Virus record (IMG/VR): IMGVR_UViG_3300025164_000825
Location: 1-23,290 of that record
Origin: a virus
Direction: 5' to 3' (one strand)
DNA: 23,290 nucleotides
Both the position numbers and the translations under genes were made by a program. The notes under the pieces are model-generated. The model did no database searches, was not told the DNA's origin, and saw only the letters and a list, made by a program, of their open reading frames with translations. Within the stretch, counting starts at the first letter, position 1. Every line of letters starts with the position of its first letter. Shown in pieces: positions 4,592 to 10,515 of the stretch.

Positions 4592-5107
4592 TCACTTATA
4601 GCCGTAATAGCCGCCGCCGGACGCCTCGGCCGTCTTCCCGTAGGGCTGCGCGAACTTGCTGGCCATGCTGGAAATGCCCCCAAGGATCGTTCCCAGCGCC
4701 GCCGAGCGTGCGCCGGACAGCGCGGCCTTGCCTTCCATCCGCCGCCCGGCCGCCTGCGCCTCGATGCCGGCGCGGCGCGAGGTTCCGCCATACATCGACA
4801 TCTGCTGCTGGACGGTGCCGTATTTCTCGATCTCGTCGGCCAGTGCGAGCGATGTCGGATCGGTCGCTGTGAAGCCGGACGCGGCGGCTTTGGTGGTCAG
4901 TTCCGACAGCGCCAGTTCTTTCTTGCGCTGATGCTCGAAGCCCTCACGTTGCGCGGCGGCCTGTTCTTCCTTGGCCTTAATGTCAAGCTGGGCGGCTTCG
5001 TAATCGGCGGCAACCTTGGCCTGCTTTCCGGCGGCGATGGTGCCCTGTGCCTGTACGACGCTGCCCATCATGCCGACAACGGCCGAAATCATGGCTAATT
5101 CCGCCAT
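4592..5107 (-). CDS. gp14-like internal virion protein
   Basis: The start is the ATG ending at 5107, preceded by GGAGAG, giving 171 residues; the longer open frame upstream overlaps the GNAT gene and is not credible. The product starts MAELAMISAVVGMMGSVVQA, a short hydrophobic or amphipathic N-terminus. A long Ala/Glu/Gln/Lys helix follows at about residues 25-85 (AAGKQAKVAADYEAAQ, EEQAAAQREGFEHQRKKE). The C-terminus is Gly/Tyr rich. This layout, size and position match the small internal virion or ejection proteins (T7 gp14 type) that insert in the outer membrane after adsorption. The next gene encodes the transglycosylase core protein. No enzyme motif is present. Confidence 0.65.
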   Translation of the reverse strand: MAELAMISAVVGMMGSVVQAQGTIAAGKQAKVAADYEAAQLDIKAKEEQAAAQREGFEHQRKKELALSELTTKAAASGFTATDPTSLALADEIEKYGTVQQQMSMYGGTSRRAGIEAQAAGRRMEGKAALSGARSAALGTILGGISSMASKFAQPYGKTAEASGGGYYGYK

Positions 5108-5733: not shown

Positions 5734-5969
5734 GCGCCGTACATTTCGATTTCAGCGGGGTGGAGGTGATAGAGCCAAAGATCGGCTACCTCATCGCGGA
5801 TGCCTGTCTTGGCAAACGCCCTGGAACGCCGCTGATACTTCCTCTTCCAATAGGCGTTATCGCCCGCCTTCGCGAACATGGCGCGGCGGCGACGACAGCG
5901 ACGGCTGAAAGCATCCACCTCACCGCCACAGATCGTGCGGATGTCTGGTCCCTTTCTCATGCACATCAT
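5730..5969 (-). CDS. Hypothetical basic phage protein, 79 aa
   Basis: The start at 5969 is chosen because its ATG overlaps the TGA of the upstream gene (ATGA at 5966-5969). The product starts MMCMRKGPDI and is strongly basic in the middle (FSRRCRRRRAMF, YWKRKYQRRSRAF). It then has a hydrophobic helical end with DEVADLWLYHLHPAE. The Arg-rich segment suggests nucleic-acid contact, but no family is recognised. The whole gene is coupled on both sides by four-base overlaps. The open frame upstream of the chosen start lies inside the preceding gene and is a shadow. Confidence 0.6.
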   Translation of the reverse strand: MMCMRKGPDIRTICGGEVDAFSRRCRRRRAMFAKAGDNAYWKRKYQRRSRAFAKTGIRDEVADLWLYHLHPAEIEMYGA

Positions 5970-6226
5970 CTCACCCCAATCACCACCGCTTGCGGAAAAT
6001 GCCTCCGCGCCTCCATCACCCTGGCGAAGGCTTCCGCCTGATCCTTGTCCGTCCATTTCAGGAAATCCCACACCACGCGCTTGTTGGATGCATCAACCGC
6101 GCCGAACATCCTGCCGATCTGGGGTGGCGTCAGCGGGGAATGCGCGGCGACATAGGCTTCGAAGGCTGGGCGGTTGAACGACGCTTCTGCCAATTGGCGA
6201 TCCCGGTTCTGCTCTTTGCAGAACAC
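5966..6226 (-). CDS. Hypothetical phage protein whose start lies in a tRNA-like structure, 86 aa
   Basis: No ATG is available near the start of the good coding stretch. In-frame GTG codons occur at 6232-6230 and 6226-6224, and a TTG at 6193-6191. I prefer GTG 6226 because GAGG (6240-6237) lies 10 nt upstream; the GTG at 6232 is only 4 nt from that sequence. From there the product reads (M)FCKEQNRDRQLAEA, then NRPAFEAYVAAH, PPQIGRMFGAVD, KRVVWDFLKWT and EARRHFP, compact and phage-like with no known domain. Its first codons and its ribosome-binding site sit inside the long tRNA-like RNA described at 6209-6323. It ends in an ATGA overlap with the next gene. Existence of the gene is likely, the exact start is not settled. 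Confidence 0.6.
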   Translation of the reverse strand: MFCKEQNRDRQLAEASFNRPAFEAYVAAHSPLTPPQIGRMFGAVDASNKRVVWDFLKWTDKDQAEAFARVMEARRHFPQAVVIGVR

Positions 6227-6323
6227 CCGCACCGGACCTCTAACCAGCTGAGGTACATCTGGCCGAAGCCGATGGCGGGAATCGAACCCGCGACTTCCGA
6301 TGCGGATGCTCCGCAAAAAGCAG
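6209..6323 (-). ncRNA. Circularly permuted tRNA-like RNA with capped acceptor stem and 27-bp anticodon helix
   Basis: Read on the minus strand, the parts of a tRNA appear in permuted order. First is the 3' side of an anticodon-type helix (6323-6297), then a 5-nt variable loop AAGTC (6296-6292). The T arm GCGGG-TTCGATT-CCCGC follows (6291-6275). An acceptor-like stem CATCGGC (6274-6268) is joined by a TTCG loop (6267-6264) to GCC-A-GATG (6263-6256), giving 7 bp with one bulged A. Then come TA (positions 8-9), the D arm CCTC-AGCTGGTTA-GAGG (6253-6237), T26, and the other helix strand (6235-6209). The two helix strands pair over 27 consecutive positions without mismatch, five being G.U. On the plus strand those five would be C-A, so the fold belongs to minus-strand RNA. 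Conserved tRNA bases T8, A14, G15, G18, G19, A21, C48, T54, T55, C56 and A58 are all in place. It lies just before a small gene and contains that gene's probable RBS. Function unknown. Confidence 0.7.
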
Positions 6324-6354
6324 GTGCTGGCGGGCCGGGCGCTACTCCGGCTCC

Positions 6355-6432
6355 TCGCGGGGATGGAAGTCGAATCCATATCTGCGGCACGTCGTGCGAA
6401 GCCGCCGCCTTGAACCATTTAGCCACCCCACG
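6355..6432 (-). tRNA. tRNA-like gene with a 12-nt anticodon loop (possible CGC anticodon)
   Basis: The minus strand folds as a cloverleaf. The acceptor stem is CGTGGGG (6432-6426) with CCCCGCG (6362-6356), 7 bp with one G.T pair, and discriminator A at 6355. TG follows at positions 8-9. The D arm GCT-AAATGGTTCAA-GGC resembles serine/leucine-type D arms, and the T arm ATGGA-TTCGACT-TCCAT has a canonical loop. The anticodon stem GCGGC/GCCGC closes a loop of 12 nt, five more than normal. Its first seven bases TTCGCAC would be a standard loop with T33, anticodon CGC and A37, followed by an extra GACGT. No CCA is encoded (GGA follows). It could be a decayed tRNA, a tRNA with a mini-insertion, or a decoy. 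Confidence 0.5.
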
Positions 6433-6520
6433 AGGCTATCCATGACGAGTGCGATGGGTATGTCTGCTTTCCACACTGCCGCCAGTCTTGAGGCTCAACC
6501 CCTTTCAGAGTGAGCGAACA

Positions 6521-6585
6521 ATCATCCCGAAGGACTCGAACCTTCGCCAGCCCCCGGCTACGGGCCACGCATCCAGGCAGGATGA
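6521..6585 (-). ncRNA. Short tRNA-like element lacking a normal D arm
   Basis: On the minus strand a standard T arm GAAGG-TTCGAGT-CCTTC is followed by GGGATGA (6528-6522). That strand pairs over 7 bp with TCATCCT (6585-6579). Only 33 nt lie between the acceptor strand and the T stem, against about 41 in a normal tRNA. A stem such as GCCC/GGGC with a loop around GTAGCCG could serve as anticodon arm, which leaves about 13 nt where the D arm should be. G8 replaces the usual T8, and the discriminator is T. I call it tRNA-like, not a functional tRNA. The octamer GCCTGGAT occurs twice here (6592-6585 and 6578-6571). Confidence 0.35.
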
Positions 6586-6610
6586 TCCAGGCTACCCGCC
6601 GTTTTCCTTG

Positions 6611-6683
6611 CGCCCTCGCACCCTACTTCCGGCGGAACCGGACACGCGCACCAAAAAGGGTGACAGTTCGGAATGCGAGGGCG
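6611..6683 (-). repeat. Branched inverted repeat (possible three-way RNA junction)
   Basis: A perfect 10-bp inverted repeat CGCCCTCGCA (6611-6620) and TGCGAGGGCG (6674-6683) encloses two smaller hairpins. These are TCCGG-5 nt-CCGGA at 6628-6642 and CACC-6 nt-GGTG at 6649-6662. Together they would fold into a three-way junction on either strand. It sits directly upstream (minus sense) of the tRNA-like elements and upstream of a plus-strand moron gene, so it could be a structured RNA of the same island or a transcription-terminating structure. No T-run follows the closing stem. Confidence 0.4.
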
Positions 6684-6700
6684 ACTTTGCTTCATGTGGG

Positions 6701-6729
6701 CTGACAAGGATTTGGCGAGACGTTCATAT
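6701..6729 (+). promoter_or_regulatory. Weak candidate sigma-70-like promoter for the plus-strand moron
   Basis: CTGACA at 6701-6706 and TCATAT at 6724-6729 are separated by 17 nt. The first is a fair -35 match, the second a poor -10 match. It points toward the isolated plus-strand ORF that ends at 7176. Between this site and that ORF (6730-6870) I see no other gene. Low confidence because alphaproteobacterial-type promoters are hard to recognise by eye. Confidence 0.2.
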
Positions 6730-6870
6730 ACGCAATGTAGTCCCGCCGAGCATTCAGCCCGAATTCGTGCCGCGTATCACGCCCGCGACCGGCTGACGCC
6801 TCTCTAACCGAGACGCGGCGATCGCGCAAGCCCGCGCGTTTCGCACTCGGCCAGAGAAGCGTCCCGCCAG

Positions 6871-7176
6871 TTGCGGTGCGCACGGAGCACCGCTGGAGAA
6901 CGCCTCGGCGTTGATACTATTGAATGCGAAGGTAAGCTTTGGCTTGTGCCGCAATGGCTTGACCCGCAAGTCGAAGGCATGACCATGCCAACGCGAATAA
7001 TATGCCTATCGAACCTGAGGCATCAGAAGAGTCGGTTGAATGGCGTTGACTTCTTACTAACTCGCTCAATTCCCAAAGGCGTTCTTTTTGCCCCCGACCC
7101 GTCAAAATATACAGACGATTTTCTGATTGTTGAAAATCCACCGATACATATCCGGGGCGGAACAGGCGTGAATTAG
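6871..7176 (+). CDS. Lower-GC moron gene on the opposite strand, possibly 5'-truncated
   Basis: This is the only plausible plus-strand gene inside the minus-strand virion block. From about 6905 the base composition drops visibly toward AT. The coding stretch reads TIECEGKLWLVPQWLD, then MPTRIICLSNLRHQ, DFLLTRSIPKGVLF and DDFLIVENPPIHI, which has the look of a real soluble protein. I do not recognise the family. The frame is closed by a TAA at 6805, and the only usable start codon upstream of the conserved part is a TTG at 6871 without a clear RBS; the next ATG (in MTMPTR) would remove about 30 residues. The start may therefore have been lost or replaced when the gene was acquired. It ends 36 nt from the convergent end of the tail gene. 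The opposite strand is also open here (from about 7190), but reads as low-complexity Ser/Leu/Gln. Confidence 0.5.
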   Translation: MRCARSTAGERLGVDTIECEGKLWLVPQWLDPQVEGMTMPTRIICLSNLRHQKSRLNGVDFLLTRSIPKGVLFAPDPSKYTDDFLIVENPPIHIRGGTGVN

Positions 7177-7212: not shown

Positions 7213-10200
7213 TCACACCTTCTCGTTGGTCTGAACCGTCGGCACAGCCGCCAGCACCGTCACCGGCCTTGGCGCTTTCGCCCTGAGATGGATACGGCTG
7301 TCCGCTTTCCACAATCCCGGAAACGGCATGGCCGGCTCGTCGAAATGCTCGAAGATCTTGTCGGCGTCCACCACGGCCCCGCCATCGATGACGCGCGGCA
7401 GTGGGTCCAGATGGCCGCTGTCGGAGCCGAAGAAAAGCGCATTGTTGTGGGTCTGGTGGAGCACGAAACCGATCTTGTCCGACCGCTTCATCTGCGCCAG
7501 CGCGGTGCCCGCTTCCGCCGCATAGGCCAGTTTGGTGGATTTCCAGTCGGCGAGGAACCCCTTGCCGGCCACGGCGTGATGCACGGGAACCGACAGCGTG
7601 ATGTCGCCGCCGGTGTCCACGGTGTAGACGGTCTGAACGCCGCCGACATCGGGGGAACGGTCAACGCCGGGGATCGAGCCGGTGTCGTCGGACCAGACCA
7701 CGCAGGATGCGCCGACGAGATGCGCGCCGATGTCAACCAGTGCTGCGGCGCGCCCGGTGTCGGTGTAGCTCTTGGCGCAATCCATGATCCAGGTCAGCCC
7801 GGTGTCGCCTGTGCATTCGGACTCCATCGCCCATTTTTCGAGATAGCGCTTCGTCGCGCCGTTGATGGTGCGGCGCACGTGGTAGAACACGGCGTCCTCG
7901 GAAAGCCCCGGCAGCACCATGGCCTTTTCCACCGTGCCGCCCGTGCCGGTGTCGGTCTGCCACATCGACCAGCAGATGACTTCTTCCTGCGGCTCATAGG
8001 TGAGGATGGCGACGCGGCCATCGCCGAGCACGCAGTGAATCCGGGTGTCGGGCTGGCGCTGCACCGCGATGGAAACGACGCCTGCCGCCAGCAGGTCGGG
8101 CACCAGCAGCGTCAGCTCGAACGCCTCGTAATCGCCAAAGCTGGTTCCCTGTCCGCCGGGGCCGACCATGAACACGCGCTGGCGGGACCGCTGCACCATG
8201 ATGGCGCGGCTGTCCATTTTCACCGCGCGGATATTGGCCGACCCTTGCGTGGCGAAGCCCCGCGCCGAGGAGTTCGCTGGCGTCGGCGGTTCATCCAGCG
8301 ATGAGGAGGTCAGCGCCAGTTCCGCGCCGGCTGTCCCGATGATCATCCGCAGCAGCGAGACGAGGTAATGGATGTTGTCAACCGGCCCCGATCCCAGCGT
8401 GCGGATGATCGGCCCCTTGTCGCCCACGGTGTCCTGATCGAAGCTCTCGTAATCGTCGGCGACCGACAGGAACAGGCTGCCCCCCTGGGCATGACCAAGA
8501 CGCCCGCTATGCAAGGCGACCGCCGTCGGGAAGCCGCGCGATGTGGACCAGTAGCCTTCCTGCCAATTGTCGGTGGGACCGGTGTCGGAGAAGCGGGAGA
8601 GCACCTCGATATCGACATCGGTGTTGGAATTGTAGCCGGTGATGCGGGCGATGCCGGTCACGCCGCCATAATCGTAGCGAACCTTGACGACCGCGACGCC
8701 AGACACGTAGTTGGTCATTCGCGCGCGATAATGGGCTTTCACATTGTCGTCGCGATCAACAATCTTGCGGAAGAACGTGCCGGTATCCGACGCGGCCGCC
8801 GACGGAAATGAAAAGTTGGTGGGGATCTCCTTGAAGCCGGATTCCGGGCCATCAATAGAGCGCTCGATTTGGATTCTTCCCGACCACGTACCGCTGACAT
8901 TGAAGGTGATATTGCGGTCCGACGAGCCTGTGTCATCGATAATGTTGAGAGTGTTGCCGGTATCGGTGAGGGTGATGCCTATGACTTCGATCGGATCGGT
9001 TTTCGCATCGAGCGCGCCAAGCCGCCATTGCCCGCCCTGTCCCTCATGGAACGCCCGGATCAGCGCGCCGACATGGCCGGGATTGAAATACGGCACGTCC
9101 GAATTCAGCGTGGTGTTGCCGGAAAAGTGGCTGACCGACATCTTTGCCTGCGACGAAGCCGTCGGCAGAAACGGCCCGTTGCTTGGCGCATAGTCCACCA
9201 CCGACCACGACCGTCCCGTCCCGCGCCTCTCGATCTTGGATGTCTGGACGCCATCGCAATCGGCATAGACCACATCGGCGGACTGATCATAGCGGATGTT
9301 GGCGAGATCAGCCGCATCCCACGGCGCGGTGATCTCCACTGTGCCGCTGTCGCCGATGGCGATCGAGGACACGATGCGGTTGACGATGGCGTCGGACTGC
9401 AAGGTGATGTGGAAATCGCCGCCTGGCGTGAAGGCAAGATTGTGATAGCCGGTGCCGAGCGAAGTCTCCGACACATAGTCGTCATCGCCGGCCGTCGAGC
9501 CGACCCGGAATACCACTGGCCCCCGCGCCACGGTAATTGCCAGCGAATGCTCGACGCCCAGATCGCCGGTATCGACCACCACCCGCTTACGCGCACGCGC
9601 CAGCGAGCCGATCGCCGAAGCGTTCAGGGTCAGGCCGTTGCTGTCGAATGTGACCTTGGTGTTGGATGCGGTTTCGAACATCTCGATTTCGGAGATGATC
9701 AGCTCGATGTCGGACGAGACCGCAGTAACGTGCATCCGCCAATAGCGCCACGGGCCGGGCGTTCCTGTATCCTCCAGCGTGTAGGTGCGTTTTTCGCTCG
9801 CCCCCCAGCTGATCTCCGAACCCTGGGTGTCCTCGATCGTCCAGCCATTGCCGGTATCGACATCGTTGCCCTGGAGGGACCAGACGCGCGGAGCACTGTC
9901 AGCCTGGCTGCCGGCGATCGATGCGCGGACAGAATAACGGGTGATCGATTTTGGCGAACCGAAATCGACTTTTAACCAGCTTGGCAGCAGATCGACATTA
10001 TCGGGAGCATTCGCCCATTGCGTGGAAACGTTATCGTCAGCGGTCGTCCATGGGGTGGACCCCGACGAGGCTGTGACCGTGACACCGCTGGTGGTCTCCC
10101 CCGTCATCGTCGGGATAGCATCGGTGGCGCTGATCGACGCCGTGCCGCCGGTGGAGGCGTCATTCCATCCAGTGTCGGTGAAGTTGACACTGGCGCCGAC

Positions 10201-10515
10201 GAGCGGACGGCCAAGCAGCGCCAAGGCATGGGCGTCATCGCCAAGCCAGACGCGCATCTTGCCGTGCGTCAGTTCCAACAGCGCGACATCATCGGTCGAG
10301 GCGACGAACTCGATGAACTCCGCCCCGGTGTCATTCAGGCTGGAGCCGAAAAACTTCGTGCCCGGCCGGATGGTCATCGCCCCTTGGGTCTTGGGCAGCC
10401 AGTTGGTGTACACCTCCGCCGAGAGCCGGGTGCGGTCCAGATCGACGCGGGCAAGCGCCTTGGGCGAGAGCAGCCCGCGGTTGAACGAGAGGAATGGCGT
10501 GTTGGTTCTGGCCAA
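7213..10515 (-). CDS. Tail tubular protein B (T7 gp12-like), 1100 aa, with discoidin-like insertion
   Basis: The product starts MARTNTPFLSFNRGLLSPKA followed by SAEVYTNWLPKTQGAM and IRPGTKFFG (residues 33-57). This N-terminal pattern is typical of podophage tail nozzle proteins that sit under the gp11-type adaptor. At about residues 138-281 there is a discoidin (F5/8 type C)-like sandwich: SWLKVDFGSPKSITRYSVR, then RVWSLQGN and PWRYWRMHVTAV with a terminal ISEIEMFE. This suggests glycan or envelope binding. Further on, WQEGYWSTSRGFPTAVALH and GRLGHA belong to the conserved tail-tube core. At 1100 residues it is larger than T7 gp12 (about 794). The protein carries 14 copies of the tripeptide DTG (for example residues 62-64, 114-116, 220-222, 249-251). 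It starts 6 nt after the gp11-like gene. It is the last virion gene before the RNA island. Confidence 0.8.
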   Translation of the reverse strand: MARTNTPFLSFNRGLLSPKALARVDLDRTRLSAEVYTNWLPKTQGAMTIRPGTKFFGSSLNDTGAEFIEFVASTDDVALLELTHGKMRVWLGDDAHALALLGRPLVGASVNFTDTGWNDASTGGTASISATDAIPTMTGETTSGVTVTASSGSTPWTTADDNVSTQWANAPDNVDLLPSWLKVDFGSPKSITRYSVRASIAGSQADSAPRVWSLQGNDVDTGNGWTIEDTQGSEISWGASEKRTYTLEDTGTPGPWRYWRMHVTAVSSDIELIISEIEMFETASNTKVTFDSNGLTLNASAIGSLARARKRVVVDTGDLGVEHSLAITVARGPVVFRVGSTAGDDDYVSETSLGTGYHNLAFTPGGDFHITLQSDAIVNRIVSSIAIGDSGTVEITAPWDAADLANIRYDQSADVVYADCDGVQTSKIERRGTGRSWSVVDYAPSNGPFLPTASSQAKMSVSHFSGNTTLNSDVPYFNPGHVGALIRAFHEGQGGQWRLGALDAKTDPIEVIGITLTDTGNTLNIIDDTGSSDRNITFNVSGTWSGRIQIERSIDGPESGFKEIPTNFSFPSAAASDTGTFFRKIVDRDDNVKAHYRARMTNYVSGVAVVKVRYDYGGVTGIARITGYNSNTDVDIEVLSRFSDTGPTDNWQEGYWSTSRGFPTAVALHSGRLGHAQGGSLFLSVADDYESFDQDTVGDKGPIIRTLGSGPVDNIHYLVSLLRMIIGTAGAELALTSSSLDEPPTPANSSARGFATQGSANIRAVKMDSRAIMVQRSRQRVFMVGPGGQGTSFGDYEAFELTLLVPDLLAAGVVSIAVQRQPDTRIHCVLGDGRVAILTYEPQEEVICWSMWQTDTGTGGTVEKAMVLPGLSEDAVFYHVRRTINGATKRYLEKWAMESECTGDTGLTWIMDCAKSYTDTGRAAALVDIGAHLVGASCVVWSDDTGSIPGVDRSPDVGGVQTVYTVDTGGDITLSVPVHHAVAGKGFLADWKSTKLAYAAEAGTALAQMKRSDKIGFVLHQTHNNALFFGSDSGHLDPLPRVIDGGAVVDADKIFEHFDEPAMPFPGLWKADSRIHLRAKAPRPVTVLAAVPTVQTNEKV

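What the first reader, a model, noticed from the sequence alone, without database searches (positions are those of the whole stretch)
6209..6323. A complete tRNA core in circularly permuted order, with a TTCG-capped acceptor stem and a 27-bp anticodon helix
Every conserved part of a tRNA is present on the minus strand, but the 3' half (variable loop, T arm, acceptor 3' strand) precedes the 5' half (acceptor 5' strand, positions 8-9, D arm). The acceptor strands are joined by only TTCG, so the stem would be a closed hairpin with no free amino-acid-accepting end. The anticodon stem runs on into a helix of 27 uninterrupted pairs (6323-6297 with 6235-6209). Five of the pairs are G.U in minus-strand RNA and would be C-A on the other strand, which argues for selection on the RNA and shows the sense strand. 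Permuted tRNA genes are known from some algae and archaea. Two-piece tmRNA of alphaproteobacteria is also permuted but lacks a D stem. I know of no phage RNA of this form. It may be a tRNA mimic, a decoy for tRNA-cutting or modifying enzymes, or a cis-regulator.
Basis: partly seen in the sequence, partly recalled or inferred. Interest (0 to 1): 0.85.

Follow-up and report, generated by a model that had tools for sequence, protein, structure and literature searches.

The report
Phage-encoded Y RNA that mimics tRNA
The odd 'inside-out tRNA' is real, but it is a phage copy of a known bacterial RNA (YrlA, a Y RNA), whose tRNA-shaped head with a sealed acceptor stem sits on a long handle normally gripped by the Ro60 protein; this copy is unusual because its handle lacks the usual grip site and no Ro60 gene lies on the fragment.

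Summary
On the minus strand a T arm, an acceptor stem closed by UUCG and a D arm follow in permuted order on a 27-bp stem (22 Watson-Crick, 5 G.U). It is far beyond chance (28 pairs against at most 14 in 2000 resampled flanks; fold z -4.8).

The form is not new. The RNA matches the bacterial Y RNA family YrlA (Rfam RF02553, 45.7 bits, E 2e-9) over its full length. A YrlB-like RNA (RF02565, E 2e-6 for the record) with a Ro60-site-like motif lies 370 nt upstream, in the yrlB-yrlA order of Salmonella.

A pattern search found about 14 more permuted, UUCG-closed tRNA domains in other phages. Nine of 15 contigs carry a Ro60 (TROVE) gene, against 0 of 19 control contigs with plain tandem tRNAs (p = 1e-4). 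A relative of this phage (L017) has such an RNA about 40 nt before its Ro60 gene.

This copy departs from the type: its stem has no Ro60-site internal loop, no Ro60 gene lies on the 23-kb fragment, and it sits among virion genes. Best reading: a variant YrlA-type Y RNA. Its function as a Ro60/PNPase-tethered tRNA mimic is inferred, not shown.

The parts
6209..6323 (-). YrlA-type Y RNA-like RNA (whole structured unit)
   Evidence: RF02553 YrlA full-length match 6317-6212, 45.7 bits, E 2.2e-9 and E 4.7e-11 for the record; fold
6297..6323 (-). 5' strand of the 27-bp basal stem
   Evidence: 27/27 pairs, 5 G.U
6275..6291 (-). T arm (GCGGG-UUCGAUU-CCCGC)
   Evidence: sequence; fold; YrlA alignment
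6256..6274 (-). acceptor stem closed by UUCG (CAUCGGC-UUCG-GCCAGAUG, one bulged A)
   Evidence: fold; same closure in other phage RNAs
6237..6253 (-). D arm (CCUC-AGCUGGUUA-GAGG)
   Evidence: sequence; YrlA alignment
6209..6235 (-). 3' strand of the basal stem; a possible GTG start of the next ORF (6226-6224) lies inside it
   Evidence: ORF
6693..6765 (-). YrlB-like second Y RNA with Ro60-site-like internal loop (GAAUGCU ... CCUUGUC)
   Evidence: RF02565 31.5 bits, E 1.3e-4, E 1.7e-6 for the record with 0 of 14 control genomes ringing; fold shows two helices with the internal loop; conserved in L002 4721-4795

Best explanation
The element is a phage-encoded YrlA-type Y RNA. Its two ends pair into a long basal stem. 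In bacterial Y RNAs that stem is the handle bound by the Ro60/Rsr ring. On the stem sits a tRNA-like module: D arm, T arm and an acceptor stem sealed by a tetraloop, so it can look like a tRNA to elbow-reading proteins but can never be charged. Shown here: the anatomy, the YrlA match, the YrlB-like partner upstream, and the linkage of the same RNA form to Ro60 genes in other phages, including one related to this phage. Inferred: it is transcribed, it is recognised by tRNA-modifying enzymes, and it works as a Ro60-tethered tRNA mimic that redirects PNPase or protects against tRNA-damaging enzymes, using a Ro60 encoded outside this fragment or by the host.
For: Full-length RF02553 match, E 2.2e-9, equal in score to the Ro60-linked RNA of L110 (44.8 bits). 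RF02565 YrlB-like RNA 370 nt upstream on the same strand, as in rsr-yrlB-yrlA-rtcBA of Salmonella (PMC9879122). A pattern that fixed only the T loop, TTCG and D loop found 46 contigs. Where no ordinary tRNA is called on either side, 13 of 16 junctions have a closed complementary acceptor, against 4 of 32 in plain tandem arrays (p = 5e-6). TROVE/Ro60 genes occur in 9 of 15 such contigs and 0 of 19 controls (p = 1e-4; 8 of 14 after removing a near-duplicate, p = 2e-4), all within about 6 kb of the RNA. The related phage L017 (tail protein 59% identical) has the same form (CATCAGC-GCAA-GCTGATG) about 40 nt upstream of a 434-aa TROVE ORF. Known biology of YrlA: PMC8394870, PMC7790460.
Against: The score is below Rfam's gathering cut-off of 69 (but none of the 40 phage records searched reaches it, Ro60-linked ones included). 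The basal stem is 27 uninterrupted pairs: the YrlA internal loop (AAUGC / ACUUGU) is absent from the alignment. No TROVE gene and no RtcB gene on the 23-kb fragment, and the RNA lies among virion genes, unlike the Ro60-linked cases. No expression data.
Confidence: 0.78

Rival explanations
1. Ro60-independent tRNA mimic: a YrlA-derived RNA whose stem has lost the Ro60 site and which now works alone as an unchargeable decoy for tRNA-binding or tRNA-cutting enzymes.
For: Uninterrupted stem; no TROVE on the fragment. Similar closed permuted RNAs also occur in long contigs without a detectable TROVE: L093 127 kb, L097 79 kb, L098 65 kb, L099 166 kb. [quoted passage not shown]
Against: The YrlB-like partner keeps a Ro60-site motif. 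The fragment is incomplete. Divergent Ro60 could be missed by Pfam. No anticodon loop is present in the window RNA, which argues against a decoy for anticodon nucleases.
Confidence: 0.2
2. Cis-regulator of the next gene: the stem hides the start region (GAGG at 6240-6237, GTG at 6226-6224) of the small ORF 5966-6226, and tRNA-like binding by a protein opens or closes it.
For: The possible GTG start lies in the 3' strand of the helix. The ORF has gene-like codon composition (G+C 0.62/0.45/0.74 by position, like the phage's other genes).
Against: The true start is unknown (an in-frame TTG lies at 6193). The protein has no Pfam or PHROG match and no viral relative was found. The L002 phage has a different small ORF there.
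Confidence: 0.08
3. Ordinary junction between two decayed tandem tRNA genes: 3' half of one followed by 5' half of the next, read as permuted.
For: Any tandem tRNA pair reads as permuted; the related contig L002 has four ordinary tandem tRNAs at the same place. ARAGORN calls a degenerate tRNA at 6352-6265. The sequence CCGGGATCGCCA just downstream also ends an L002 tRNA-Arg.
Against: The YrlA model beats the tRNA model (45.7 against 28.5 bits). The second half has no T arm downstream. The 27-bp helix between the two anticodon sides is not expected from two ordinary tRNAs (controls 6-10 pairs). Closure is rare in true tandems (4 of 32).
Confidence: 0.04
4. A permuted tRNA gene that is processed into a working tRNA, as in red algae and some archaea.
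For: Correct order of halves.
Against: No anticodon loop, no bulge-helix-bulge seen in the fold, no CCA, and a 4-nt UUCG closure in place of a processed intervening sequence.
Confidence: 0.01

Closest known systems
YrlA, bacterial Y RNA (Rfam RF02553; S. Typhimurium YrlA structure PDB 6CU1)
   Same: D arm, T arm and closed acceptor in permuted order on a long stem made by the 5' and 3' ends; full-length covariance-model match
   Different: Stem is one uninterrupted 27-bp helix without the usual internal loop; no rsr gene on the 23-kb fragment; lies among virion genes
YrlB, second Y RNA of Salmonella (Rfam RF02565)
   Same: The neighbouring RNA at 6765-6693 matches it, with a GAAUGCU/CUUGUC internal loop between two helices
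   Different: Low score (31.5, cut-off 97); no rsr gene near it
Y RNA-Ro60 modules of other phages (found here: L017, L089, L091, L096, L104, L110, L118, L121, L135)
   Same: Permuted tRNA domain with a tetraloop-closed acceptor and a terminal stem
   Different: They lie within about 6 kb of a TROVE gene; many keep an anticodon-arm-like hairpin that the window RNA lacks
Permuted (two-piece) tmRNA, RF04321
   Same: Same order of tRNA parts; long helix in place of the anticodon stem
   Different: 14.1 bits against a cut-off of 47; real D stem here; closed acceptor without CCA

Membership tests
YrlA-type bacterial Y RNA (RF02553) | tRNA-like domain with D, T and acceptor arms in permuted order, acceptor closed by a hairpin loop | tested here: met
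   covariation over 15 phage relatives, partly circular
YrlA-type bacterial Y RNA (RF02553) | Large stem formed by the 5' and 3' ends | tested here: met
   27 bp; definition from PMC8394870
YrlA-type bacterial Y RNA (RF02553) | Score above Rfam's curated cut-off | tested here: inconclusive
   45.7 bits against 69, E 2e-9; but none of the 40 phage records searched reaches it, Ro60-linked ones included, so the cut-off does not separate phage members
YrlA-type bacterial Y RNA (RF02553) | Ro60-binding internal loop in the stem (AAUGC / ACUUGU in the model) | tested here: inconclusive
   Absent from the window stem (deleted columns), but Ro60-linked phage RNAs such as L096, L104 and L121 also lack the exact motif; the YrlB-like neighbour has it
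YrlA-type bacterial Y RNA (RF02553) | Ro60/Rsr (TROVE) gene near by | tested here: inconclusive
   None in the 23,290-base fragment; fragment incomplete; present in the related phage L017 and 9 of 15 class contigs
YrlA-type bacterial Y RNA (RF02553) | Binding to Rsr and PNPase, modification by TruB and DusA | not testable with these tools
   Needs biochemistry
YrlB-type Y RNA (RF02565), for 6765-6693 | Two helices separated by a GAAUGCU/UUGUC internal loop | tested here: met
   0 of 14 control genomes ring at the same threshold; score below the curated cut-off
Permuted tmRNA (RF04321) | Score above cut-off | tested here: not met
   14.1 against 47 bits
Permuted tRNA gene (algae, archaea) | Anticodon loop and a processable intervening sequence between the acceptor strands | tested here: not met
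   UUCG directly closes the stem; no anticodon loop

The most novel reading that the evidence does not exclude
Some phages, this one included, carry YrlA-shaped RNAs that have cut loose from Ro60: a sealed, unchargeable tRNA mimic on a plain double-stranded handle, used as a free decoy or regulator of tRNA-handling enzymes during infection.
Probability: 0.2. Interest if true: 0.6.

Novelty: new variant of a known kind. Interest (0 to 1): 0.4.

Why it matters
Y RNAs and Ro60 in bacteria were characterised in a few hosts. Phages that carry both, or only the RNA, give natural experiments on what the tRNA mimic does, and the Ro60-free cases could separate the role of the tRNA-like head from that of the Ro60 tether. 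For annotation, these RNAs fall below the Rfam cut-off, so they are missed or called degenerate tRNAs.

Tried and rejected
Junction of two decayed tandem tRNAs: considered first because L002 has ordinary tandem tRNAs at the same site; rejected by the model comparison, the helix and the closure test. Permuted tRNA gene and permuted tmRNA: rejected by anatomy and score. DNA similarity in phage and plasmid records: only a 57-base tRNA-like piece and nothing. Relatives of the small downstream ORF: none. Tail-gene relatives in GTDB genomes: none. Of 27 contigs with the related tail gene, only L018 (the same contig as L002) matches the window's RNA island or has a tRNA just downstream of that gene, so the window RNA itself could not be tested by close relatives. 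My own model R1 of the permuted core also rings on tandem tRNA junctions and is not specific; I did not rely on it. RtcB linkage: 2 of 15 class contigs other than the window and 1 of 11 controls, no signal. Promoter and terminator scan: nothing useful.

Full report
OBSERVATION. RNAfold gives the long helix, T arm, closed acceptor and D arm in the MFE and centroid structures (-86 kcal/mol, z -4.76, 0 of 200 shuffles as good). All 27 pairs of 6323-6297 with 6235-6209 form, 22 Watson-Crick and 5 G.U. The best helix between the flanks is 28 pairs; 2000 first-order resamples give a mean of 7.9 and a maximum of 14.

SURROUNDINGS. The window is a 23,290-base linear IMG/VR virus record with podovirus-type virion genes: portal/adaptor, major head protein, tail proteins, internal virion proteins (one matching T7 gp14). 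The RNA lies in a non-coding island, minus strand, between the large tail gene (7213-10515) and a small ORF (5966-6226). The same island holds a DUF3800-IX RNA (6682-6608, above its Rfam cut-off) and degenerate tRNA-like pieces. The related contig L002 (tail-gene piece 82% identical) has ordinary tandem tRNAs for Gln and Arg at the same place. That raised the plain rival: any tandem tRNA pair reads as a permuted tRNA.

TEST OF THE PLAIN RIVAL. A pattern fixing only the T-loop, TTCG and D-loop letters was scanned over 2.9 million viral contigs (46 contigs). Many hits are plain tandem tRNAs with a TTCG spacer and acceptor strands that do not pair. A second group has no ordinary tRNA on either side, and its two acceptor strands pair across TTCG. 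Counted mechanically over distinct junctions, closure occurs in 13 of 16 junctions with no tRNA called and 4 of 32 with tRNAs on both sides (p = 5e-6). The window counts as 'one side called' because ARAGORN calls a degenerate tRNA over its 3' half. In an alignment of 15 cores, 97% of cells pair, the covariation score is 0.724 (shuffles 0.187, slid structures at most 0.172), and all seven acceptor pairs show changes on both sides. That alignment was picked partly for closure, so one search is the less biased test.

WHAT IT IS. Several members have further terminal helices with CCGAA/CUUGU-like internal loops, which suggested bacterial Y RNA. Three tests agree. First, Rfam with an E-value threshold: the window RNA matches YrlA, RF02553, over the full model (45.7 bits, E 2.2e-9), as does the member from L110 (44.8 bits); permuted tmRNA scores 14.1 and tRNA 28.5. 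The cut-off of 69 is reached by none of the 40 phage records. Plain tandem arrays also ring on this model, mostly at 20-34 bits, with one at 39.6, so the model alone would not suffice. Second, Ro60: TROVE (PF05731) genes occur in 9 of 15 contigs with closed permuted tRNAs and 0 of 19 tandem-tRNA controls (p = 1e-4; 8 of 14 after removing a near-duplicate), within about 6 kb of the RNA in contigs up to 193 kb long. Third, a contig chosen only because its tail gene resembles the window's (L017, 59% identity) has a TROVE gene and, about 40 nt before that 434-aa ORF, a closed permuted tRNA (CATCAGC-GCAA-GCTGATG). Its loop is GCAA, so UUCG is not obligatory; my census is biased to UUCG by the pattern. 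L017 is the only one of 24 tail-gene relatives with a TROVE gene.

A SECOND Y RNA. The conserved block after the tail gene (87% identical in L002) matches YrlB, RF02565, at 6765-6693 (31.5 bits, E 1.7e-6 for the record; no control genome rings). It folds into two helices around a GAAUGCU/CCUUGUC internal loop. The order YrlB then YrlA is that of rsr-yrlB-yrlA-rtcB-rtcA in Salmonella (PMC9879122).

HOW IT PROBABLY WORKS. YrlA is described as a modular RNA with a large end-to-end stem and a tRNA-like domain; DusA and TruB modify it, Rsr binds the stem and PNPase the head, making a degradation machine (PMC8394870). The head has also been proposed to inhibit a tRNA nuclease (PMC7790460). By analogy the phage RNA would tether a Ro60 ring to host RNA-decay or tRNA-handling enzymes during infection. 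The analogy is inferred, not shown.

HOW IT DIFFERS. The internal loop that carries the Ro60 site in the YrlA model is missing; the stem is continuous. No Ro60 gene lies on the fragment, which is incomplete. It stands among virion genes. Long phage contigs with closed permuted tRNAs but no detectable TROVE also exist (L093, L097, L098, L099), so a Ro60-free variant is possible. A possible GTG start of the next ORF lies in the helix, leaving room for cis-regulation.

NOVELTY. Phage TROVE proteins are reported in some jumbo phages, in a text that notes the tRNA-like partner of their cellular counterparts (PMC7824862), and a YrlA was annotated in one mycobacterial prophage (PMC8190616). From memory, Chen et al. 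2014 (RNA 20:1715) reported Y RNAs near Ro60 in over 250 bacterial and phage species; that paper is not held. So the kind is known; this is a variant.

Noticed in passing
window 6785-6875, minus strand: A second very strong hairpin (18 uninterrupted pairs at 6863/6795; -60 kcal/mol, z -5.6) just upstream of the YrlB-like RNA. Not identified.
   Followed up: partly
window 6608-6682, minus strand: DUF3800-IX RNA above its Rfam cut-off, an orphan motif RNA sitting inside the Y RNA island; L002 has a similar-looking block near 4925-5000 by eye, below the Rfam threshold.
   Followed up: no
window 6521-6586, minus strand: T arm with a 7-bp acceptor (ATCATCC/GGATGAT) but no proper D or anticodon arm; weak tRNA-Sec match. 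L002 4800-4905 also gives a weak tRNA-Sec match.
   Followed up: partly
window 6354-6433, minus strand: tRNA-Ala(CGC)-like gene with an odd, roughly 10-bp acceptor and a poor anticodon arm; may be a decayed tRNA or another mimic.
   Followed up: partly
L092/L099 group, L093, L097, L098 contigs: Closed permuted tRNAs in long phage contigs (65-166 kb), several rich in tRNA genes, without a detectable TROVE gene: possible Ro60-free family.
   Followed up: partly
L089, L110, L096, L098, L104, L180: Many phage YrlA-like RNAs keep an anticodon-arm-like hairpin (often with loop CUGCUAA) 5' of the variable region, so the permutation point lies between the D and anticodon arms.
   Followed up: partly
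window 6207-6192, minus strand: CCGGGATCGCCA right after the stem is identical to the 3' end of the L002 tRNA-Arg, a likely remnant of a lost tRNA.
   Followed up: no
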